This document shows, in pieces, positions 8,151 to 60,254 of a DNA stretch of 64,000 bases. Both the position numbers and the translations under genes were made by a program. The notes beneath the pieces are model-generated. The model was given only the letters and a program-made list of their open reading frames with translations, did no database searches and had not been told where the DNA came from. Every line of letters starts with the position of its first letter. Position 1 is the stretch's first letter. Source of the DNA: Ascaphus truei. Its lineage: Eukaryota; Chordata; Amphibia; Anura; Ascaphidae. Location of the stretch: assembly GCA_036426205.1 (NCBI GenBank), contig CM071573.1:71894580-71958579 (forward strand), written 5' to 3'.

Positions 8151-8998
8151 CGGAACCCGCCACATGACTGGGGCCCTCCTGTAGTTAGGAAACGTGCCCT
8201 TTAACTAAGTTCCAGCAGTAATGGTCCTAGATTATTCTCACTATTGAGAAGGAGAAAGCATGCTTTTAGTAAGGAGTTCTCAGTGTCAGTAACTCTGGAG
8301 TGTGTCTGAATCAGCCTGACCGGAAGGTCCCTAGTGCAATCCTGATCAGATAGGTATGGAAGAAGTACACAGTAGCGGGATATAAATCCTAGAGGCCAGA
8401 GTGTATTCCATGGAGGTCAATTTAATATGGGGCATCTCTACCTACGCAGTTTAACCCTTACTACAGGTAATAAGTTAAATACCTCCCCAGTGTATGAGTG
8501 AGAGCTACAAAGGGGACGAAGTTCAGAGTATTATGTTTTGGCACGAGTTTCTGTCAAGTGGGAGGCATGTCAATACTTGTGGAGCCTTATAGACAGATGT
8601 CACAAAAAGCACCTTTATGTTTTTCAAAAATTCCTGGCGCCCGTCCTTATTCACGCCCAGCCTGCACCTACCCAGCACCCTGAACAGGTATGAGAGACTG
8701 AGCAATGTAATATACATAGTCAATCTGATGTAAACTACTTTGGAACAGGGTAAGGAGAGTTGCACTTATACGTAGGGCATTAAAATATTCATTAAACTTT
8801 GGGTTTCCATGCAATAGTGCCCCGATCAGCACTTTCATAGTTGAATGAATTGACCCCATAAACTCCATGATACCTAGTAAGATTTGGATAGAGGGGCAGC
8901 ACTGAAGATCACCAGCTTTTCCCTTGGAGCTCCCCTATAAAATGTTCTTGCACGCAGTGTCGGATAAAAAAATTACCGGGTGCTGCCCTCCTCCTCCA
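8151..8998. other. Unassigned non-coding sequence
   Basis: No gene or clear element boundary was recognised. Confidence 0.35.
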
Positions 8999-8999
8999 G

Positions 9000-9777
9000 T
9001 AGGGATGGTTCTCCGGAAAGCGCAGGAATATGTAGAAGCAAAAAATATATTGATAGTGCAATATTGTATGTGATAATTTCGGAGTAAATTGGCTGATCTA
9101 TTATAGATGTACTCACAAGTGTGAGAGGGTTAAAGGCACGTAAAGGTATCTTTCAATAATATGGATATCGCACGGTGGTCAGGAAATCAGTCTTAGCCCC
9201 ATATAGACTCCAAGAGACCTTAAAGAAGAAGACTGGACATAGTGCAGACTGTATACAAAGAATTTATAAAAGTAAGTGGAAGGTATTACACTCACATGAT
9301 TTCAAAAGTTTAAAAGCATTTCGATCACACGCAGTGGATCTCAGCAGCCGGATAGATGGTGTCTCTGCTTCCCCTCCTTCTGTGGCGTGCGTGTCACGGG
9401 TTGCGTTCCAACTGCACCGGAAGTGATGTCATCCGCTTCCAGGTGTTCCGGCCAATGGTAAAGACGTCACTCTACGCGTTTCACCTCTTCGGTTTCATCA
9501 GGAGTCCTTTGTAGTTCTTTGTATACAGTCTGCACTGTGTCCAGTCTTCTTCTTTAAGGTCTCTTGGAGTCTATATGGGGCTAAGACTGATTTCCTGACC
9601 ACCGTGCGAAATCCATATTATTGAAAGATACCTTTACGTGCCTTTAACCCTCTCACACTTGTGAGTACATCTATAATAGATCAGCCAATTTACTCCGAAA
9701 TTATCACATACAATATTGCACTATCAATATATTTTTTGCTTCCACATATTCCTGCGCTTCCCGGAGAACCATCCCTA
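9000..9777. mobile_element. Fold-back element A with hammerhead-like loop
   Basis: Two nearly perfect inverted arms of about 262 bp (9000-9261 and 9516-9777) flank a 254-bp loop. The arms contain AGTCTTAGCCCCATATAGAC and its complement. The loop has a GC-richer part (AAGTGATGTCATCCGCTTCC) and ends in the hammerhead-like motif on the minus strand. The same plan recurs at 36552-37449 and 59648-60220. Penelope-like retroelements are known to carry hammerheads and often sit as inverted partial copies, so that origin is a reasonable inference. No protein is encoded. Confidence 0.7.
9469..9505 (-). ncRNA. Hammerhead ribozyme-like motif, best copy
   Basis: On the minus strand the core boxes are present in order: CTGATGA (9495-9501), a weak stem II (ACC/GGT), then GAAACGCGTA (9473-9482). 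ACTC directly before the first box pairs with GAGT after the putative cleavage site, giving a 4-bp stem I. ACGCGT is self-complementary, which matches the very short stem III of dimer-forming retroelement hammerheads. An extra A follows CTGATGA, as in every copy here; an insertion at this point is tolerated in at least one viroid hammerhead. Catalysis is not shown by sequence alone. Confidence 0.55.
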
Positions 9778-11203
9778 CTACTCACCACGAGGACTGACAG
9801 AGCAATCCTCACCGGGTTATAGCAGCACCTGTTTATGTGTTTGTATAAGTATCACTTTTTTGATTATTATATCACTATCTCTAGCAATTTGATTTATTTA
9901 GAGCGCCACCATTTTGATAAGTTTCCTTTTCACATGCACCTCCTCCTCCAGTGCCACGCTGTCCTGTTACCAATGCAAAGCCGCGTGATGTCACGTTGCC
10001 AGCCGTTCATGCGTATGTGCTAATCGCGCATGAGTGACGACAAGCGCCCCCAAATTCTTCCGCTCTAGGCCCGGGCCTAATGGGAAATTCACCACTGATA
10101 ACACGTCACTCAGTTTTCTGAGGTGCGTCATCCTTGGTACTGTAATTGTACAGTGATAATGAGCATACAAGAAGCAGCTGACTGATCATTTTTAAAAGGT
10201 GCCATACACATCATTATCTGCAGCTTTAAACCAAACTGTTGCACTTACCATGTCTAACATGTTCTAAGCATAGCCCTTTTTTTTTTTACAAACAAATCCA
10301 AATCTCTTCTTGCATTTCAAATTATGTTTACCATTGAAAAGCTTATGAACTTTTAAGTCCTTCAGCTCAAAAATCTTTGAAGATGCGATTTAATATTCAT
10401 CAACTTACCCTAAGGCTTCTATGCATACATGTGAAATCCCAGTTTATTTAGGTGTATAATGTGGTCTGCTATTCTAAGAGCTCAGGGCAGTCCTTCCTAA
10501 TACCAAATATAACTATTGGTAAGTGAATTCCCTTTTGTACTGCTAAGATATATACAGTACATTCAATCTTTTGGGATTATAGTGTAGGACTAAAAGCATC
10601 TTCTTTAAACTCTTCCACACAACTGTGCCTCTGAAAGCCCTATATTTATGCACGACTGCTTGAAGAAGGCTTCTAGCTTAAATTTGCTCAAATTACTGGT
10701 TATAGTTCATTTTCTGCTCAATTACTGATCAATGGATATGGAACTTCTTTTTTCTTTGCCCTTAGCAGTGCTGGCTGACAATTACTAACACATTTGCTGA
10801 ATGTGCCCTAATTATTATATACAAAGCTGGAGCTAAGCAATCCATTTTAACTAACCAATGTCAATAGCCCTTACCTGCAATTGTATTTGGTTCCAAGTTT
10901 AGAAAACAAGAACAAAACAGTTTATTGAAGCTGAAAGTGTGGGACCATGTGAAGACACCCCAAGCAAACAAAGATATTAGAAGAAGACACGGCTCAGGAA
11001 AATGACTTCTAAATACAGCATACTGAAAATGAAACACGAAATTTTACCATCGCCTGATGTTTACTCATAGCACTCTGTTTATTTGAGTCTCCTGGCTGAG
11101 GCAAAGCCGCTGCAAAAAAACATTGAGGGTAAGGACAGATTTTGATCAATCTGGTACTGTTCTGTGGTAGTTTTACCAACCATGAGATTTAAAAAAAATA
11201 GAT
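9778..11203. other. Unassigned non-coding sequence
   Basis: AT-rich and unique-looking. No coding frame with a domain, no RNA gene and no element ends recognised. Confidence 0.4.
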
Positions 11204-18760: not shown

Positions 18761-19519
18761 AAAAAGTGAAACAGCCAGCCGGCGTGCATGTCAATACTCA
18801 GACTCCTTGTCTTCAGCTGTATGGCATAGGTCAATGGGGTGAATGAAGCAGATTTGGGGGACCCCGTGGAAGGCACGCAGATGAACTGATAGGTGCCATG
18901 TCTTTATTCCAGATCTGCAAAACTGTATGCCAGTTTCTGGCTTCCCCCCCCTCGGCACAACTAGAGTCAGTATTTAATGAAAGTCATTACCATCAAGTAT
19001 CTATGTGGTGGCCTGTATAAAATGAATTCACATTCCTACTATAGTTCCCAGTAGGCAGATATGTACATCCCTAATAATACTTTCACAATGGGTTGCCATA
19101 ATTGTTAATTGAGTAGTTGGCAGCAAGCAGTAGGAATATGGATTGAAAGGGCATAGCAGCTAAGCAGCCCTTTGAACCTTAAAGGTGGTCCCCCAGGAGA
19201 GCAATTAACTTGCACTGGCAGGTTGTTATGGGCCGTGGAAAAGCTTTATCTATTGCTACATGATTCTGTTTCTAGGCTGTGGTCCAAATAATGCTATGCA
19301 CCAAACAATACAAGATTGCACGGCCAGTGTGATTTATAAAGTACAAAAGAGCTACAGAGCTCAATCACCGTGGACATGTTACGTTATAATAAATATGTTA
19401 AAGCACAGTCAGTTATATTACAGAATATAAATAGGATACAATTATTAATAGTAGGATATTTTTATCAATGTTACAGGCAATGCAAGTGGAAACATTTTGG
19501 GGGGATTTTTCTTTTTAAC
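18761..19519. other. Unassigned non-coding sequence
   Basis: Nothing recognised. Confidence 0.35.
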
Positions 19520-19902
19520 ATAGTATTGAAGCAGAGGGTCTCTGGAGTTGAACCTCGTTCATTTCACCTCCGGGGACCCCCTGCTTCCGGAGATACTACC
19601 GTCTGTAGGGGTTACCGGTAGTTGCTCTGGCTGGCTAGCAGGGATCTCATAATGGCCGCTTTTCAAAGCTTCATCACCCTGCGGGCCAATAGGAAGATGT
19701 GACGTCATCCAGTTTGACTTCCTATTGGCTAGCGTGATGCATGAGCTTTAAAAAGCAGAGAGATACCGGCACCCCCTTCAGAGGTAAGTATCTCTGGAAG
19801 TAGGGGTCCCAGGAGCTGAAATTAACAGGGGTCAGCTCTGGAGACCCCCTGCTTCAATCATATGTTAAAAAAAGCATTTGCCCGCTTGGATTGCTTCTTT
19901 AA
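19520..19902. mobile_element. TTAA-flanked MITE, copy 2
   Basis: Shares the GAAGCAGAGGGTCTCTGGAG / CTCCGGGGACCCCCTGCTTC modules and the CCAATAGGAAG interior with copy 1. The right end is CTTGGATTGCTTCTTTAA. The left terminal repeat is not evident. Confidence 0.65.
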
Positions 19903-32299: not shown

Positions 32300-32565
32300 G
32301 CCCTAGAGAAGGTTGAGGTCCCTTACAATGCATCTGATCTCAGACGCACTATTAGAGAGGGTTGGGGTTCCTTACAATGCATCTGATCTCAGACGCGCTA
32401 TTAGAGAGGGTTGGGGTTCCTTACTATGCATCTGATCTCAGGCGCGCTATTAGAGAGGGTTGGGGTTCCTTACAGTGCATCGGATCTCAGGCGCGCTATT
32501 AGAGAGGGTTGGGGTTCCTTACAATGCATCTGATCTCAGACGCGTTATTAGTGAGGGTTGTGGTT
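32300..32565. repeat. Second array of the 49-bp tandem repeat
   Basis: About five to six units of the same 49-bp monomer as 1205-1575, in the same orientation. The ends of the carrier hAT element are not evident here. Units are at least as homogeneous as at the first locus. Confidence 0.85.
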
Positions 32566-35681: not shown

Positions 35682-36551
35682 GCCTTAGGTGTCTTTCAGC
35701 ACCAGACGGTGTCTTAGGACAGAACACTGCATAATAGGCAGGGGCCTAAAACGTCTTGAATTTAGAAAAAGAGGCCAGTTTACTCCATTTAATATCAACT
35801 GTTCTCTCTCTTTTAGGTTAATTTATTAACACTATAGTTAAAGAAGCCATTTTTTTTAATTTCCAATTGTTTTTCAGTTAAATAAAGATTTCTGCGCAAT
35901 AGTGCACAGCATATTGAAAAATAAAAAAGAGAAAAATAAAAAAATATGTAGTTCAGTAAGTGAGTATTTATATAGTGAAAGGATGTTCAATTCTTCTTAT
36001 AGGGCACTCACATTTCCTTAGAACAGTTAAAGCCCGTAGTGCCTCTCACAGGAATCCAAGATCCTCATGCAGATTAAGAAAAACAAAAGGTGATAATATA
36101 GTTTAGTAACTTCAACCAAACACCTTATTTATTGCATTCACATAGTAAAAATTAGACTTTAAAGGCATAGAGAGTAAACTACAGAGTGAAGTCTTGCCAG
36201 TTGCCAGGTAAACTTCAGCACCCTCTGACCACATGTAACGTGGCTCCATGGTTCCTTCTCGTGACATCACTTCCAGTTGATGCATTTCCGATTCACCTCC
36301 ACCCAACGCGTTTTGTAGATGCTCACTATATAAGCAATGACTTACTACACAATGTATTTTTCTTTTACACAAGGCTTGTGCTTGTTAAATGACTGAGATA
36401 AAAGGGGTGGTGTGAAATAGAGCTAAAATAAAGAATGTGTTGAGTGATGTGACCTAATTAGGACCACTAGAATACCTCTTATAAAGGTAGGCCGCCTGGC
36501 ACAAATCTAACCGAAAAAGATCAGATGAACAATACAAATACACAATAAGAG
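35682..36551. other. Unassigned, with ACGCGTTTTG relic
   Basis: About 36240-36340 has CACTTCCAGTTGATGC and AACGCGTTTTGTAG, resembling the GC-rich part and the ACGCGTTTC end of the hammerhead-like loops. It is too decayed to fold as one. The rest is unrecognised. Confidence 0.35.
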
Positions 36552-37449
36552 TGTCTTACAAGTCCTTGAATATGTCTCTTTAAGTCCAAATGGAGGAAGT
36601 GTCCAAAGAACTCTTCTAGTCCTGTGCTTCCAAGTGAATGGATGATTCCACGGCTGTGCGTACCGTGATATGTGGATCAAACACAAGAAAAAATCATAGT
36701 GCATCACTGCTGATACATAACAAATGATGACATACAAAACATAAGAGTAACACCACATACAAAACATACACCACAAGACTAACACCACATATAAAACATA
36801 CACACCATATAAAAACAATAACAACAAATGATAGCAAGGCTAAAATATAAAAGGCTAATTTAATACAACATAAAAAACAATAAAAATTGCTAGAATAAGT
36901 ATCACAGTGATGCAGCTGGTCTGGTGGGTTAAAACCTGAATCCTACTCACAAGATGGTGGGAGTAAACAGGCACAGTATATTGACTGCAGTGAGATATTA
37001 GCTAGTCCTCCAGTAACACTGGGGTATCAGTAGATGCACTCCAATGCTTTCCCGCGCTCCTGGGACGGATACTCCGACACTGGGGGCGGACCTCGAGGAG
37101 AAGAGCCTCTTCCTGCTTGTCAGACCAAAACACGCCTGTAATGCTGCTCACGTCAGTTCCGTCAAATTAGCTCATGAACTTTGACCCTACGCGTTTCGTG
37201 CGCTTGCGCGTCACTTCTTCAGGTGTGGTGTGTATGTTTTGTATGTGGTGTTAGTCTTATGTTTTGTATGTCATCATTTGTTGTGTATCAGCAGTGTTGC
37301 ACTATGATTTTTTCTTGTGTTTGATCCACATATCACGGAACGCACAGCCGTGGAATCATCCATTCACTTGGAAGCACAGGACTAGAAGAGTTCTTTGGAC
37401 TATTCCTCCATTTGGACTTAAAGAGGAATATACATGGACTTGTAAGGCG
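36552..37449. mobile_element. Fold-back element C with hammerhead-like loop
   Basis: Inverted arms 36552-36805 and 37223-37449 share AGAACTCTTCTAGTCCTGTG and GTGATATGTGGATCAAACAC and are nearly identical. The left arm carries an extra partial repeat of ACACCACATACAAAACATAC. The loop has an AT-rich part and a GC-rich part (GGGCGGACCTCGAGGAG) ending in the ribozyme-like motif at 37184-37230. Same layout as element A. Confidence 0.7.
37184..37230 (-). ncRNA. Hammerhead-like motif with GNRA-capped stem II
   Basis: On the minus strand: CTGAAGA (37216-37222), an extra A, then stem II GTG-A-CGC/GCG-CAC closed by a GCAA tetraloop (37198-37214). GAAACGCGTA follows at 37188-37197. The core boxes match the hammerhead consensus CUGANGA/GAAA. 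Stem I pairing is weak, so cleavage is uncertain. Confidence 0.5.
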
Positions 37450-37539
37450 CCGGATCTTGTTAAATGACTGCTATATAATCAATGACGTGCCTGGGAAGAA
37501 TCTCCCAATGATACCGTGCCATGAAAAATGATAGGGACA

Positions 37540-42854: not shown

Positions 42855-43205
42855 TTAAAACATAGGTTTGAAGCAAGGGGTCTGTGGAGCTGAACTCTGT
42901 TAATTTCAGCTCTGGGGACCCCCTGCTTCCAGAGATACTTACCTTCACAGGGGGTGCTTGTAGCCACTCCGCTCGGCTAGCAGGGATCACGTAATGGCCG
43001 CGATTCAAAGCTCCCGCACCCTGTGGGCCAATAAGAAGCTGTGATGTCATTCGGGGCAACTTCCTATTGGCCCACGTGACACCGGAGCTTTAAAAAGCAG
43101 TGACATACCAGCAGCCCCCTTCCGAGGTAAGTATCTGGAAGCAGGGGGTCCCCGGAGCTGAAATTAATGGGGTTCAGATTCGTAGACCCCCTGCTTCAAT
43201 TCTAA
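42855..43205. mobile_element. TTAA-type MITE, copy 3
   Basis: GAAGCAAGGGGTCTGTGGAG ... CTGGGGACCCCCTGCTTCC on the left and GGAAGCAGGGGGTCCCCGG ... GACCCCCTGCTTC on the right. The interior CCAATAAGAAGCTGTGATG is close to copies 1 and 2. The outermost terminal bases are not preserved. Confidence 0.65.
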
Positions 43206-47796: not shown

Positions 47797-48003
47797 TATG
47801 TTTGAATATTAAATGGTGTTTCCCCCCCCCCCTTAACTCAAGGCAACAAACGGTGAGCTTATATGACCACCCTATGATCCCATGCTTGTTTACCTGCATA
47901 TTTTAACCCCCCACCCCTTTACAACTTATTTCACTGCAGCCTCTCCCAAAACTAACTGCACAAAAATACCTCCCACACCTATTCATTCCACTGAAACCCT
48001 GAA
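47797..48003 (+). other. Likely LINE 5' leader
   Basis: C-rich segment (AACCCCCCACCCCTTTAC) running into the LINE frame. Where the element starts cannot be fixed without other copies. Confidence 0.4.
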
Positions 48004-49925
48004 TTGACTCCAGCATTGCAATGCAGCAACACATCTGACAAGGAACAGGCACATCCCTGCTGTTTAGTCTGCACACACTCACTTTGCTCACAACAGCTCC
48101 ATGCAGCACTGCCTACCTCTGGCATAATGAACCTGCTATGTATCTTAACTTTTTTCTTTCTCCTGGCCTTGTGGAGATGTTACTCCCTCTATACACTACA
48201 AACTCCTCCCTCCTGGCCCACACCCAACATCACCATACACCCTGGACTACTCAAAAGCCTTGCACTATCTACTGAATGTTGGTGGAGAACTCTAGAAACC
48301 AGCACACCAACCACTGCTCCCTCAAATGGCAAACACCACAAATTTACGACTTGCAAACAGCTACCCAAATTTCTACTCTTACTATTACTCTCTTTAGCAG
48401 GTGATATTGAACCTAACCCAGGTCCTCCCATTTCAGCTCTGTCCCATGCCCCTGAGAATTCCAACTTTAAATTCCAAAAAGGGCTATCTGTCGGCCATAT
48501 AAATATCCGGAGCCTGCTGCCCAAACTGGATGAACTAAGGGCATGGTGCCTTATCCATAAACCCAAAGCCATCGTTCTTACAGAAACATGGCTAACCCCT
48601 AAAACCCCTGATGCAAATATCGCCATTCAGGGATACTCCATTTCTAGGAGAGATAAGTCAAAGAGAGGAGGAGGGGTGTTATTTTATATTGCAGACACCT
48701 TACAATTTACACTGTTAAATTGGCCCCCAAGCCCACCCTCTTTTGAAATTCTAGTTGACAAAATCTGCCTCCCCTTTTCTAAGCCCATCTTGATTGCTGG
48801 CATCTACCGCTTCCCTAAAGCCCCTCTACAATCCCTGACTGATATCACCCAGTTTCTGGGCTCCATTTCCTCTCTGAACGAGAAGAGTGAGCTGCTAGTT
48901 CTTGGGGATTTCAACTTCAATTGGCTTGACCCTAAAAACCACAAAATCCAGATACAACTCAAGTCACTTAACCTATCACAACTCATTTCCCAACCCACAC
49001 GGACAAACCTGAAATCGCACAACCATTCCTTGCTAGACTGGATTCTTTCCTCAAACCCCAGCAGAATCCAATCCTCTGGCATCCTTCCTGATATTTTCAG
49101 TGACCATGCAATAGTGTACTGTGTAAGGAAAATTAAACCGCCCCATTCAAGCCCTAATGTTCTCCTCACTAGAACATTTAAAAACTTTAACCCACAACAG
49201 TTTCTGGATGACCTTACCAACTGCCCATGGCACAGAATCGATTTAATTCCCGACCCCGATTCTGCGCTCGACTATTTCCAATCCGAGTTCTTAAAACTCT
49301 GCGATACCCATGCTCCACTATGCAAAATAAGGGTACGGGGGCCCACCTTCCATGGGTTACAACTGACCTTGTAGCACTCTACCAGTTCAGGGATAGCTTG
49401 TGGAAAAGCTACAAAGTAACTGGCACTGCCAAGGATCTCAATCACTACAGATGCCTGCGGAACATGTGCACAAGGCAAACAAGGCACGCAAAAGCACAAT
49501 ATTACTCTGACAATCTCCACCAAAATACATCAAACCCAGCTACAGTAACTTCTGGAAGGTTATCAACAATATATTCTAGCCTCCTAACCATTAACAACCA
49601 AGTAATATCACTAAGGGGGATATTACTCTGACAAACCCCACTGACATTGCAAATGCATTCAATGATAAACTTTGTGGGGTGTGCCACTAACTTATTAGAG
49701 AAACGCAGCCCAAACCACAAACCTGAATCTCATCCTGGGAGTACCCACATAGCCCCACCCCCTCCCAACACTGCCCACAATTTTCAATTTGGGCCAGTAT
49801 CTGAAGAGGATATTACACAAGCGCTCCTCAAATTAAAACTAAGCAGCCAATGTGGACCTGACTTACTACAATCTAGGTTCCTACGACTTGGTGCCCCAGC
49901 CATTGCCAAACCAATTTCTGAATGC
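48004..49925 (+). pseudogene. L2/CR1-like LINE ORF: 2A, endonuclease, start of RT
   Basis: The open frame runs to 49374. Its first in-frame ATG is at 48127, just before a hydrophobic stretch (MNLLCILTFFFLLALW). Counting codons from 48004, a second hydrophobic run (121-133) leads into a 2A motif (134-141). An APE-type endonuclease follows with HINIRS (N167), TETW (E194), GIYR (Y268), GDFN (D302/N304) and SDH (366-368). A frameshift near 49340 moves the reading to HLPWVTTDLVALY, another lies near 49545, and SEEDITQALLKLKLSSQCGPD opens the reverse transcriptase. The match stops near 49925, so most of the RT and the 3' end are missing. The clade is inferred. Confidence 0.85.
48403..48426 (+). other. 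2A ribosome-skipping motif
   Basis: Encodes D-I-E-P-N-P-G-P, an exact match to the D(V/I)ExNPGP signature, preceded by a Leu-rich segment and Gly. 2A motifs cause the ribosome to skip the Gly-Pro bond. They are known near the N-terminus of several APE-type non-LTR retrotransposons. Here it would separate the hydrophobic leader from the endonuclease-RT protein. Confidence 0.85.
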
Positions 49926-56071: not shown

Positions 56072-56369
56072 TTAGGGGGCTATGCACTAAGCTCCATGCT
56101 TTTGCGTCTGTTTGAAATAAAAAATCACGTCCGATACAAAGTGAAGCCGGAGACGCGATTCACTAAGGCCTTGAGGCCATTTTCTCCCGGCCGGGCCAAA
56201 AACTGGCTTATCGTACGTGCAAGCTTTTCCCCCTGCTAGTGTTCTTAAACTTCACGTACGCTAGCTGCTAGAAAAAAAAGCTGCATGTAACATTTGCATG
56301 GAGATTTGCCATCTCCATGCAAGGCTGTTACAGGCGATTGTACACTAAATAAATACATTTGAATAATAG

Positions 56370-56640
56370 TGTACATGAACAAGGGGTCTCCGGAGCTGAA
56401 TAGCATTGGTTTCAGGTCCGAGGAACCCCTACTTCAGGAGATACAGGCCCCGTTATGGAGTGCCGGTATCCCCTACAGAATTTCAATGTCCCGGTCACGA
56501 GACGCGGATGCTTGAAAGTGCAGGGGATACCGGCACCCCATAACGGGGCCTGTATCTCCTGAAGTAGGGGGTCCTCGGACCTGAAACCAATGCGGTTCAG
56601 CTCTGGAGACCCCCTGCACATCTACACTATGAAACACATG
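56370..56640. mobile_element. TTAA-family module inside giant palindrome
   Basis: AACAAGGGGTCTCCGGAGC and GCTCTGGAGACCCCCTGC, with GATACCGGCACCCC and its complement in between, form a small fold-back. It belongs to the same family as copies 1-5. It appears only in the left part, so it either inserted later or was lost from the right part. Confidence 0.6.
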
Positions 56641-57639
56641 TATATTAAAAAAAGATTTAACAAACATCAATACACGACCCCCCCCCCCTCAGCCCTAACA
56701 CATACAGTACAATAATGTGCAAAATTACTATTATCCAGATATGGATAATAGATTATTTGCCCATTATTAAACACTGCATTAGCATACCTAAATAAAGTCA
56801 ATAAAAACAGTAGCCAGCTAAGCCAATGAATACAAGCAGTAACAACATCAACAATGAATTAATTAAACCATTATCCAATGAAACCAATTAATTCTAAAAC
56901 CAACTCAAAATGAATAGTAACACTAACCAATCAAACCAATGAATTACTACAACATTAATGAATGTAAACATTAAAAGACAAAGAAATTCAAACATTATCT
57001 GAAATAACCATAAAACGCATTCGCTAACATAATACAACATTAACTACAAACGAACAACAATCGCAAACATTTTATTACCATTAAGCAGGAAAAAAACAAA
57101 CAATCACATCCACATAAGAAATTGAAATTAAAAAAACCAATAGCAATACCAAGCCACAAATGCCCCCCAAATATTGTCATAATAATGTATTAATCTGTAC
57201 CCTAAAGTGGTACAGATTAATATATTATCAGTCAATGTGCCTCCCCCAAAAAATCAAAAAACACATCCAATGAAGAAACCTGTAAAAAGAGACATTTACA
57301 AACATTCAATATATTACTTACCATTAGAAGCGGTGGCCCTCCGACTCCCGGGGTAACAGGAAGCTCACGTACCTTGAAGGCCTTCAACAGCATCCGATGC
57401 CATCCGCCATGAAGATCCGGTCAGGTACCCAAATCTTCTTTTTTCTTTCTTTAATCACCTTCTTCTATCTTCATCGGTCACCATTTCTTGATCTTCTTTA
57501 TCTTCTATCTTCATCTGTCAATCCAAAAAAACCCCATGGTAAATCCCAACCGATGTTGTCTCGTCGTCTTCTTGGGCTCAAATGAGGCGTCACGGCCTGA
57601 AATAGGGCTTGTGATGTCACATATAGCCTCAAAAGGGTT

Positions 57640-57985
57640 AACAGCAACCTGATTGGCTGTTCAAACCATGTTCCGGCTTTATTTTTTTTACATGACGTCA
57701 CTTAAAGGGAATGATGCCAGCCAATCAGAATGGCTGTGCTTCATTTGCCTTTAAGATGACTTTACTAAATCCAAGATGGCCGGCGTCACATGGTATTTCA
57801 GCCAATCAGAGTGTGGAATTGGTTCCCATGAACTGATTGGCTGAAATACCATGTGACGGCTTCGTCACGTCATCTTAAAGGCAAATGAAGCACAGCCATT
57901 CTGATTGGCTGGCATCATTCCCTTTAAGTGACGTTATGTAAAAAATTTTTTTTAAGTTTGAACATGGTTTGAATAGCCAATCAGC
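57640..57985. promoter_or_regulatory. CCAAT-rich centre of the giant palindrome
   Basis: Six CCAATCA or TGATTGG sites (57652, 57720, 57803, 57834, 57902 and 57977) lie symmetrically around the centre, with a TGACGTCACTT segment at 57696. CCAATCA is the NF-Y core and TGACGTCA the CREB/ATF core. This looks like a bidirectional promoter, but it may simply be element sequence; no transcript is evident. Confidence 0.4.
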
Positions 57986-59479
57986 TGGCTGTTAACCATT
58001 TTGAGGCTAAATGTGATGTCACAAGCCCTATTAAAGGCCATGACGCCTCATTTGAGCCCAAGAAGACGACGAGACAACATCGGTTGGGATTTACCATGGG
58101 GTTTTTTTGGGTTGACAGATGAAGATAAAAGATAAAGAAGATCAAAAAATGGTGACAGATGAAGATAGAAGAAGGTGATTAAAGAAAGAAAAAAGAAAAT
58201 TTGGGTACCTCATCCGGATCTTCATGGCGGATGGCATCGGATGCTGTTGGAGCCCTTCAAGGTACGTGAGCTTCCTGTTACCCCGGGAGTCGGAGGGCCA
58301 CCGCTTCAAATGGTAAGTAAAATATTGAATGTTTGTAAATGTCTCTTTTTACAGATTTCTTCATTGGATGTGTTTTTTGACTTTTTGGGGGAGGCACATT
58401 GACTGATAATATATTAATCTGTACCACTATAGGGTAAAGATTAATACATTATTATGACAATATTTGGGGGGCATTTGTGGCTTGGCATTGCTGTTGGTTT
58501 TTTTAATTTCAATTTCTAATGTGGATGTTATTGTTTGTTTTTTTCCTGCTTAATGGTAATAAAATGTTTGCGATTGGTGTTCGTTTGTAGTTAATGTTGT
58601 ATTATGTTGGCTAATGCGTTTTATGGTTATTTCAGATATTGTTTGAATGTATTTCTTTGTCTTTTAATGTTACATTCATTAATGTTGTTGTAATTAATTG
58701 GTTTGATTGGTTAGTGTTACTATTCATTTTGAGTTGGTTTAGGAATTAATTGGTTTCATTGGTTAATGGTTTAATTAATTCATTGTTGATGTTGTTACTG
58801 CTTGTATTCATTGGATTAGCTGGCTACTGTTTTAATTTACTTTATTTAGGTATGCTAATGCAGGATTTAATAATGGGCAAATAATCTATTATCCATATCT
58901 GGATAATAGTTATTTTGCACATTATTGTACTGTATGTGTTAGGGGGGTGTATTTAGTTAGAAATAATGTTTAGTATATTTATAGGCACAACATTAGTACC
59001 GCAGGCCCGCGCGTACCCCGAGACTCCCGCAGGGACCCCAGGACGGTCGCGGGGTCAGCCGGGGACACCCGCGAGACCCCCGGCCTCCCTCGGGGACCTC
59101 CATGGGGTCAGCTGGGGACACCCGCCGGCCTGTTGTATGGGTGTTGCGCACGCAAAAATGTAAACAAATACATTTTTCAAAGTCCAGCTTTTTTATCACC
59201 TGCCATGAGTTGGCGATCTTTTCTGAACGCAACTTTCGCGTGCGATAACTTTGCGTAGCTTAGTGAATCCCAGAGAAGGGCAGAATTGAACGCAAACAGG
59301 TTATCGTACGAGCAAAGTTGGACTTTGAAAAATTTCCAGGAAAAAGTCAGTTTAAGAACGCAAAGTGCCTGTTTGCGTGGCTTAGTGAATCGTGTTCGGC
59401 GAAACATCACGTTCTAAGAGCACTTTGCGCTCTTAAAACGACTTAACGGAGCTTAGTGCATAGCCCCCATAAAGTCTTG

Positions 59480-59647
59480 GAAGTGAATTGATAAAAAAGG
59501 AAACATGTCACCCTGGAAGAGAAATGCAACCCTTTTGGAAGATGTTTCCCAACATCTAATAGGGCAATACAGCAAAAACTTCACAGCGCAAACCTCTCCA
59601 GGATCATTAAAAGAGAAAAATTACATAGTGCAAAAAAGCTACTATAG
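59480..59647. other. Spacer between palindromes
   Basis: Nothing recognised; probably belongs to the left part of the following fold-back element. Confidence 0.3.
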
Positions 59648-60220
59648 AAGGTTAGTAGTCAAAAAGTATTATAAACTGCTCACTCACGTGGTGTCAGAAA
59701 AAATCAGACGTTTTCAATATTGTGTCTTGATCTTTTCCTTTAGGACGTTTGTATACTTTTAATTCCCGAGGAAGCTCCCATATCTGAGTGAAACGCGTAG
59801 GGTGGGAATCTTTACGCGCAGGTTGTCATCCTTCCACTCCTGCAAGTGAAATCCACCACCAGAGCCTCCCTGATCCTCCCCTCCGGTGACAGCTGCTACC
59901 CGGAAGCGCGACTCCGGATCAATAGAGAAGCCAACAAATGAGTGTTCGGGACGACGCGTTCTTGGACCCAGAGTGGTCACTCGACTTTTTATCTACCTGG
60001 AGCATGTAAGTTTGCTTTGTCCACTGATCTAGTGTATTTTACTTTTAGAAAGCATTTTGCACTGTCTACCTCTTCTTCTTTCTCCACCTAATCTTTGGGA
60101 GTTTAAAGTATGCAAACGTCCTAAAGGAAAAGATCAAGACCCGACACAATATTGAAACGCCTGATTTTCTCTGACACCACGTGAGTGGGCAGTTTATAAT
60201 ACTTTTTGAGCGCTAACCTT
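59648..60220. mobile_element. Fold-back element B with hammerhead-like loop
   Basis: Inverted arms 59648-59760 and 60100-60220 share AAAAAGTATTATAAACTGC and CTCACGTGGTGTCAG and TTGATCTTTTCCTTTAGGAC. The loop holds the ribozyme-like motif on the plus strand at 59763-59812, next to a GC-rich part. Arms have more differences than in A and C, so this copy is older. Confidence 0.65.
59763..59812 (+). ncRNA. Hammerhead-like motif, one core change
   Basis: CCGAGGA (59766-59772) replaces CUGANGA by a single U-to-C change. GCTC/GAGT form stem II around an 8-nt loop and GAAACGCGTA lies at 59790-59799. ATTCC and GGAAT can pair as a stem I with an internal loop. The core change would be expected to weaken or abolish cleavage. 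Confidence 0.45.
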
Positions 60221-60254
60221 AGATACGTTGGTTTTACACATATTTTCTAAACAA

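What the first reader, a model, noticed from the sequence alone, without database searches (positions are those of the whole stretch)
9000..9777. Hammerhead-ribozyme-like motif in the loop of a near-perfect fold-back
The minus strand holds CTGATGA, a short stem II, GAAACGCGTA and a 4-bp stem I (ACTC/GAGT) in the right order, inside a loop bounded by 262-bp inverted arms. Hammerheads are known in Penelope-like elements and amphibian genomes. What looks less described is the repeated plan of long arms, a GC-rich loop and one ribozyme at the loop edge, seen here three or four times with unrelated arm sequences.
Basis: partly seen in the sequence, partly recalled or inferred. Interest (0 to 1): 0.8.

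Follow-up and report, generated by a model that had tools for sequence, protein, structure and literature searches.

The report
Paired Penelope element ends, hammerhead-like motif
The hairpin-like repeats in this amphibian-type genome are insertions of Penelope-like jumping elements made of two copies joined head to head, and the ribozyme-like sequence at the loop edge sits where the element's RNA seems to begin; the element type is known, but the junctions give testable clues to how it inserts.

Summary
The minus strand at 9469-9505 carries a hammerhead-like motif at the loop edge of a fold-back (265-bp arms, 98%). Fold-backs B (36.4-37.5 kb), C (59.6-60.2 kb) and an old, decayed D (35.9-36.4 kb) repeat the plan.

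It is not a new kind of element. In the host genome each loop plus arm is one end-repeat (pLTR) of a Penelope-like element (PLE); longer relatives carry a reverse-transcriptase/GIY-YIG ORF upstream. The fold-back is two pLTR copies head to head inside a 14-15 bp target duplication (A, B). The loop is the part missing from the 5'-truncated copy.

Of 17 head-to-head insertions of family A, 16 carry a ~159-nt "tail" on exactly one side and 16 have a 14-18 bp target duplication. In A, neither half can be a copy of the other, so two separate primings are likely.

The motif's stem II covaries between families (stem I only weakly). Against a standard hammerhead: one extra A in the core, no monomeric stem III, no Rfam match, and folding energy no better than shuffles. 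Cleavage is untested. A few insertion ends fall on the predicted cut site: a lead, not proof.

The parts
8987..9000 (.). Left target-site duplication of insertion A (14 bp, CCTCCTCCTCCAGT)
   Evidence: Exact repeat of 9939-9952
9939..9952 (.). Right target-site duplication of insertion A
   Evidence: the repeat is CTC-rich, so less telling alone than that of B
8998..9505 (-). Insertion A, half 1: pLTR unit U1-508 (motif, GC-rich part, arm), no tail
   Evidence: Unit boundaries from 30 family-A loci
9515..9938 (+). Insertion A, half 2: 5'-truncated pLTR U244-667 with the 159-nt tail (9780-9938)
9506..9514 (-). 9-nt linker between the two halves, source unknown
   Evidence: Lies between the two matches
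9469..9505 (-). Hammerhead-like motif of A; predicted cut between 9473 and 9472
36381..36395 (.). Left target-site duplication of insertion B (15 bp, CTTGTTAAATGACTG)
   Evidence: Exact repeat of 37456-37470
37456..37470 (.). Right target-site duplication of insertion B
36396..37226 (-). Insertion B, half 1: unit UB1-831 with tail (36396-36554)
37230..37446 (+). Insertion B, half 2: 5'-truncated UB456-672, no tail
37184..37226 (-). Hammerhead-like motif of B
59762..60235 (+). Fold-back C, motif-bearing half (older; no target duplication found)
59634..59767 (-). Fold-back C, inverted half
   Evidence: 85.7% over 140 columns
59762..59803 (+). Hammerhead-like motif of C, core mutated (CCGAGGAA)
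35935..36366 (-). Fold-back D, old and decayed, 15 bp from the left duplication of B; motif remnant AAAACGCGTTGGGT at about 36301-36314
   Evidence: (44-nt arms, 75%)

Best explanation
The fold-backs are insertions of the end-repeats (pLTRs) of Penelope-like retrotransposons. Shown from sequence: pLTR units start at the hammerhead-like motif; most end at one of two sites (family A: U~508, or U~665 after a tail); head-to-head pairs sit inside 14-18 bp target duplications; longer relatives carry a PLE ORF just upstream. Inferred: the PLE enzyme cuts both target strands with a 14-18 nt stagger, and each 3' end primes reverse transcription of element RNA, one strand at the inner site and the other at the tail site. 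The two cDNAs are joined at their far (RNA 5') ends. If one reaches the RNA 5' end and the other stops early, a hairpin results with the motif at the loop edge. The motif probably lies at the 5' end of the transcript (TATA-like box about 30 nt upstream) and may fold as a minimal hammerhead, with helix III only as a dimer through ACGCGU. Whether it cleaves is unknown.
For: Unit start: 31 of 47 family-A pieces start at U1-8, 22 of 38 family-B pieces at UB1-6, 18 of 90 family-C rows at q205-211, all at the motif. Upstream sequence is shared by 12 family-A copies; of 6 inspected for ORFs, 4 (L021, L022, L024, L031) show a PLE-like ORF, and the L022 piece matches GIY-YIG at E 6e-4. L072 has a 795-aa frame with 1604 homologues at E<=1e-20 and a pLTR 92.7% identical to U downstream. 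Pairs: one tail in 16 of 17, target duplication in 16 of 17. In A, L017 and L035 each half has sequence the other lacks. The anole PLE enzyme cuts and extends both strands and starts at two internal sites that bound the tail (PMC11167929, section 3 read).
Against: GIY-YIG match is 20.5 bits, under Pfam's 22.6 cut-off, and Pfam finds no family in the L072 frame, so PLE identity rests partly on homologues and on RT motifs that I recognised from memory. PMC11167929 saw no difference in start site between strands in vitro. Pair C1:282257924 has no tail and no duplication; L014 and L020 end elsewhere on the tail-less side. No duplication was found for C or D, and of 7 single units with private flanks only L030 has a clear one next to it. 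Halves of a pair are 93.8-100% identical (7 pairs), which also fits one RNA used twice.
Confidence: 0.85

Rival explanations
1. Self-priming (snap-back): one cDNA folds back and copies itself, making the inverted arms; favoured for rotifer PLEs in PMC3846280 (passages read).
For: Halves of a pair resemble each other more than other copies, e.g. L038 0 mismatches in 208 while about 90% to A. For B the tail-less half (UB456-672) lies wholly within the other, so B alone does not exclude it.
Against: In A, L017 and L035 the tail-less half reaches U1-4 while the tail half starts at U244, U492 or U196/499: neither can be copied from the other. In 14 of 17 pairs the tail-less end lies at U504-514, the same site where single units end.
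Confidence: 0.08
2. A long-TIR DNA transposon or MITE that happens to hold the motif.
For: Long near-perfect inverted arms; other MITE-like palindromes exist in the window.
Against: Single, non-palindromic units are common (18 of 30 loci), truncation varies at the 5' side, duplications vary from 14 to 18 bp, and longer copies carry a PLE ORF.
Confidence: 0.02
3. The motif is not a working ribozyme: it is kept as RNA start region, promoter DNA or a protein-binding hairpin, or is a relic.
For: Extra A in the core, no monomeric helix III, no Rfam match up to E 1. Folding energies of the three motifs are not better than shuffles (z -1.2, -0.5, +0.1). Many cDNAs run past the cut site to U1, so those templates were uncut. 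The anole motif is not needed for insertion in vitro (PMC11167929).
Against: CUGANGA and GAAA blocks are kept in three families while stem II changes with pairing kept; two A motifs fold unconstrained as a double hammerhead; a few ends lie at the predicted cut.
Confidence: 0.45
4. Chance resemblance to a hammerhead.
For: Short motif; energies within shuffles.
Against: No match in 100 shuffles; kept at the start of units in three PLE families.
Confidence: 0.02

Closest known systems
Penelope-like elements with inverted pLTRs and optional tail (Adineta vaga Penelope, PMC3846280, passages read; Anolis Poseidon PAc, PMC11167929, section 3 read)
   Same: RT plus GIY-YIG ORF next to pLTRs, head-to-head pLTRs, tail on one of them, target duplications, hammerhead motif, capture of other sequence
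   Different: Tail about 159 nt here against 30-40 bp (31 bp in A. vaga); duplications 14-18 bp against 8-10 bp; motif at the unit start, while in PAc the ORF begins at stem II; near-strict one-tail rule counted here
Minimal type I hammerheads of PLEs and dispersed in animal genomes (PMC7761336 and PMC6155905, passages; Cervera and de la Pena 2014 and Lunse 2017 not held, known from reference lists and recall)
   Same: CUGANGA and GAAA blocks, stems I and II, little or no helix III, palindrome suited to dimers
   Different: One extra A between A9 and stem II; I could not check whether published PLE motifs share it
Amphibian retrozymes / newt satellite hammerheads (PMC7229834, section read)
   Same: Amphibian, very weak helix III with palindromic loop, better cleavage as dimers
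   Different: Those are 330-350 bp tandem repeats; here interspersed single or inverted pLTR units

Membership tests
Penelope-like elements | Single ORF with telomerase-like RT and GIY-YIG endonuclease, linked to these pLTRs | tested here: met
   L022 ORF: GIY-YIG E 6e-4, 20.5 bits (cut-off 22.6). L072 795-aa frame: Pfam none; 1604 homologues E<=1e-20, best 120 listed, many with PF00078 and 4 with PF01541. The frame in L072 stops short of where the L022 frame ends. pLTR of L072 92.7% identical to U
Penelope-like elements | pLTRs, often inverted, with an optional tail on one of them | tested here: met
   16 of 17 family-A pairs have the tail on one side only; 4 of 4 family-B pairs with duplications too
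Penelope-like elements | Target-site duplications | tested here: met
   14-18 bp in 16 of 17 pairs, one with a mismatch
Penelope-like elements | Complete element with 5' pLTR, or transposition activity | tested here: inconclusive
   No 5' pLTR seen in L072; recent activity inferred from 41 of 44 matches at 99-100% identity
Type I hammerhead ribozyme | Core CUGANGA ... GAAA, A15.1-U16.1, H17 | tested here: met
   CTGATGA, GAAAC and GTA in A; C has CCGA; many copies show single decay changes
Type I hammerhead ribozyme | Stem II directly next to the core (10.1-11.1 pair adjoining A9) | tested here: not met
   Register with one extra A pairs fully in 51 of 55 motifs, register without it in 0 of 55; PMC3088659 rejects hits mispaired there (passage)
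Type I hammerhead ribozyme | Stem III | tested here: inconclusive
   Not possible in the monomer; 6 bp ACGCGU in a dimer; unconstrained dimer fold for A, for B with shifted stem I, not for C
Type I hammerhead ribozyme | Rfam covariance-model match | tested here: not met
   None at gathering, none up to E 1
Type I hammerhead ribozyme | Self-cleavage | not testable with these tools
   Only indirect: a few insertion ends at the predicted cut
Retrozymes | Tandem hammerhead repeats giving circular RNA | tested here: not met
   No head-to-tail array among 30 family-A loci; RNA not testable

The most novel reading that the evidence does not exclude
Genomic insertion ends record hammerhead cleavage in the animal: some PLE cDNAs stop exactly at GUA/G, so the motif cuts RNA in vivo despite the extra A, and cut RNA is still used as template. 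In addition, PLE insertion assigns its two reverse-transcription start sites one to each target strand, perhaps on an RNA dimer held by ACGCGU.
Probability: 0.25. Interest if true: 0.75.

Novelty: new member of a known kind. Interest (0 to 1): 0.5.

Why it matters
[quoted passage not shown] This genome holds a subfamily with 41 of 44 reported matches at 99-100% identity (40 candidates scored of 1437). Its junctions can be read as records of the reaction: which start site each side used, where the RNA began, and whether the ribozyme had cut it.

Tried and rejected
Rfam at both thresholds gave no hammerhead. A pattern search of viral contigs gave 11 matches; only L001 could be read by my script, its insert had no hairpin, and the other 10 were not followed up. 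Full-text search for GAAACGCGT: 78 papers, 40 listed, none by title about this motif. No target duplication was found for C. Homology of the A and B tails, which I believed by eye, is not significant (86 of 500 shuffles as good). The idea that the motif is a 3' splice site on the other strand (CTTCNTCAG) was dropped because stem II covaries. The LINE ORF at 48 kb did not name the organism. No solved structure matched the PLE ORF piece. The genome-wide motif count was never obtained. Between-family swaps of stem sides are a weak control: 1 of 6 swapped stem II combinations (C 5' with A 3') also pairs fully, and the stem I 5' side of A pairs with the 3' side of B and C through G-U, so stem I is poor evidence. 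On recount, the family-C comparison of ends used 17 hand-picked values; the table holds 21 rows starting at q212-520, of which 1 is at the cut and 6 cluster at q402-412 for reasons I did not trace.

Full report
The observation. On the minus strand, 9469-9505 reads ACTC CTGATGAA ACC GAAGA GGT GAAACGCGTA GAGT at the edge of a 252-nt loop between arms 8998-9262 and 9515-9779. Exact GAAACGCGT sites sit in the same place in fold-backs B (36555-36771/37230-37446, 95%) and C (59634-59767/60097-60235, 86%), and a decayed one in D (35935-35978/36323-36366, 75%). Against 1500 random positions the inverted-arm score of the 3 exact sites lies in the top 1% each; D is at 4.5%. In A, B and C the motif follows the 5' arm within about 0-15 nt on the motif strand (read by eye).

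What the arms are. The window lies in a 2.82-Gb assembly. A search with insertion A listed 104 matches (40 candidates scored of 1965); B gave 92 (40 of 659) and C 90 (40 of 102). Mapping 30 family-A loci showed a unit U that begins at the motif (U1 = 9505) and mostly ends at U~508 or, after a tail of about 159 nt, at U~665. Of the 30 loci, 10 are single units with tail, 8 single units without, 11 head-to-head pairs, and L032 repeats the place of L014. Insertion A is U1-508 on the minus strand and U244-667 on the plus strand inside a 14-bp duplication; its loop is U1-243, which the other half lacks.

Why Penelope. In 12 family-A copies the sequence upstream of U1 is shared for 41 to about 1500 nt. 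Of 6 of them inspected for ORFs, 4 (L021, L022, L024, L031) show a PLE-like frame. The 357-aa piece from L022 matches GIY-YIG at E 6e-4, 20.5 bits against a cut-off of 22.6. L072 holds a 795-aa open frame, stopping short of where the L022 frame ends, and a pLTR 92.7% identical to U about 560 nt further on. Pfam finds no family in that frame, but it has 1604 homologues at E<=1e-20 among 7993 scored; in the 120 listed, the organism names I saw are amphibian (Leptobrachium 43%, Ascaphus 48%, Xenopus, Ranitomeya, Ambystoma and others) apart from one fish, Coilia. Many listed homologues carry PF00078 and 4 carry PF01541. RT motif labels are mine, from recall. L074 is a 5'-truncated PLE copy with the GIY-YIG part, head to head with an inverted pLTR piece, inside a 14-bp duplication. 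No call names the host; amphibian is inferred from these relatives.

Insertion anatomy. I tabulated 17 head-to-head pairs of family A: the 11 above, L073, L074, and four seen whose outer ends were fetched. The tail is on exactly one side in 16 of 17 and on both in none; in 14 of 17 the other side ends at U504-514. Departures: L014 (U160), L020 (U384) and C1:282257924 (a short inverted piece, no tail on either side). If each side chose independently at the single-unit frequencies (10 with, 8 without), one tail would occur in about half of pairs, and 16 or more of 17 has probability about 1e-4 (hand calculation). Duplications of 14-18 bp were found in 16 of 17, one with a mismatch. In family B the four pairs with a duplication (L042 15, L045 14, L063 12, L068 15 bp) each have one tail; the fragmentary B loci L051, L064, L066 and L071, without duplications, were left out. 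Of 7 single family-A units with private upstream sequence, L030 has a clear 14-bp duplication, L023 lies in simple repeats, L018 shows long repeats of its flanks, and the rest show none of note.

Mechanism. Halves of a pair are 93.8-100% identical in the 7 pairs compared, so they come from one RNA or sibling RNAs. Yet in A, L017 and L035 each half holds sequence the other lacks, so one is not a copy of the other; B alone would allow snap-back copying. Two separate primings are the simplest account. The anole PLE enzyme cuts and extends both target strands, is modelled as a dimer and starts at two internal sites bounding the tail, though its authors saw no difference between strands (PMC11167929, section 3). 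Rotifer PLEs show inverted pLTRs, a tail on one of them and 8-10 bp duplications, and self-priming was favoured there (PMC3846280, passages). The new quantitative point is the near-strict split of the two start sites between the two sides. L033 is a 17-bp-duplication pair whose tail-side half also contains another family's motif; I did not resolve it.

RNA start. 31 of 47 family-A pieces start at U1-8 and 22 of 38 family-B pieces at UB1-6; 18 of 90 family-C rows start at q205-211. Copies with longer upstream sequence carry TATATATG at about -31 to -24 (family A) and an AATAAAAG-like box at a similar place in part of family B (read by eye). The motif is therefore probably the start of the transcript; no RNA data were seen.

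Is it a hammerhead? Stem II pairs at its three closing positions in 23 of 23 (A), 19 of 22 (B) and 9 of 10 (C) motifs that fit the search pattern; other lengths and more decayed motifs were not counted. A subfamily has AUC/GAU in place of ACC/GGU, read in L040 and both L073 units; 41 of 44 matches to it are 99-100% identical, so this is an active lineage. Stem I pairs at 4 of 4 positions in only 16 of 23, 4 of 22 and 2 of 10, partly because its 5' side lies at the insertion junction; it is weak evidence. One of 6 between-family swaps of stem II also pairs fully. Folding energies are not unusual against shuffles. Two A motifs fold unconstrained as a double hammerhead dimer; B does so with a shifted stem I; C does not. 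Against membership stand the extra A, the missing monomeric stem III and the lack of any Rfam match. The two key papers on PLE hammerheads were not held.

Cleavage lead. The predicted cut lies after U33. L014 begins exactly at U34 and L020 within about 1 nt, with an AG overlap. A family-C copy, L093, begins exactly at the first G after GUA. Of 13 truncated family-A ends, with start-site ends and three internal or nested pieces dropped, 2 lie within 1 nt of U34 (p 0.003, uniform null) and 4 within 4 nt (5e-5, width chosen after seeing the data); family B has 0 of 12. For family C the proper count is 1 of 21 rows starting at q212-520 (about 0.05 by hand), and 6 of those 21 cluster at q402-412 for another reason, so the null is poor. 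This is suggestive and small; many templates were uncut, since their cDNAs run to U1.

Novelty. Search listings with hammerhead, Penelope, retrozyme and inverted-repeat terms showed no paper on this layout in a frog, but the library is partial, and both PLE inverted pLTRs and minimal PLE hammerheads are known. I file it as a new member of a known kind.

Noticed in passing
56693-58944: A 2.25-kb palindrome with nested arms, 92.6% self-complementary, without the motif.
   Followed up: no
57-399, 19512-19871, 42859-43204, 56353-56643: Four related short fold-backs, MITE-like, 70-80% alike, without the motif.
   Followed up: no
47995-49374 (+): 459-aa frame resembling the endonuclease part of a LINE; homologues carry PF14529 and PF03372.
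   Followed up: partly
1185-1574 and 32304-32565: Two arrays of the same tandem repeat, shifted matches about 49 bp apart, 31 kb from each other.
   Followed up: no
L033 about 1455-1490: Head-to-head insertion (17-bp duplication) whose tail-side half also holds another PLE family's motif, CCTGAGGAAGCCCTGTTCAGGGCGAAACGCGTAG; chimera or nested copy unresolved.
   Followed up: partly
L018 1312-1500 and 2000-2188: Two 31-bp matches of the flanks at the same 688-bp offset around a single U1-505 unit, as if a target duplication of about 190 bp.
   Followed up: no
G000:C6:86031427, C5:49562465, C13857:55901 and other places: Many pLTR copies 99-100% identical: a recently active PLE subfamily.
   Followed up: partly
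G000 family-C rows: 6 of 21 rows with internal starts begin at q402-412, an unexplained second boundary.
   Followed up: no
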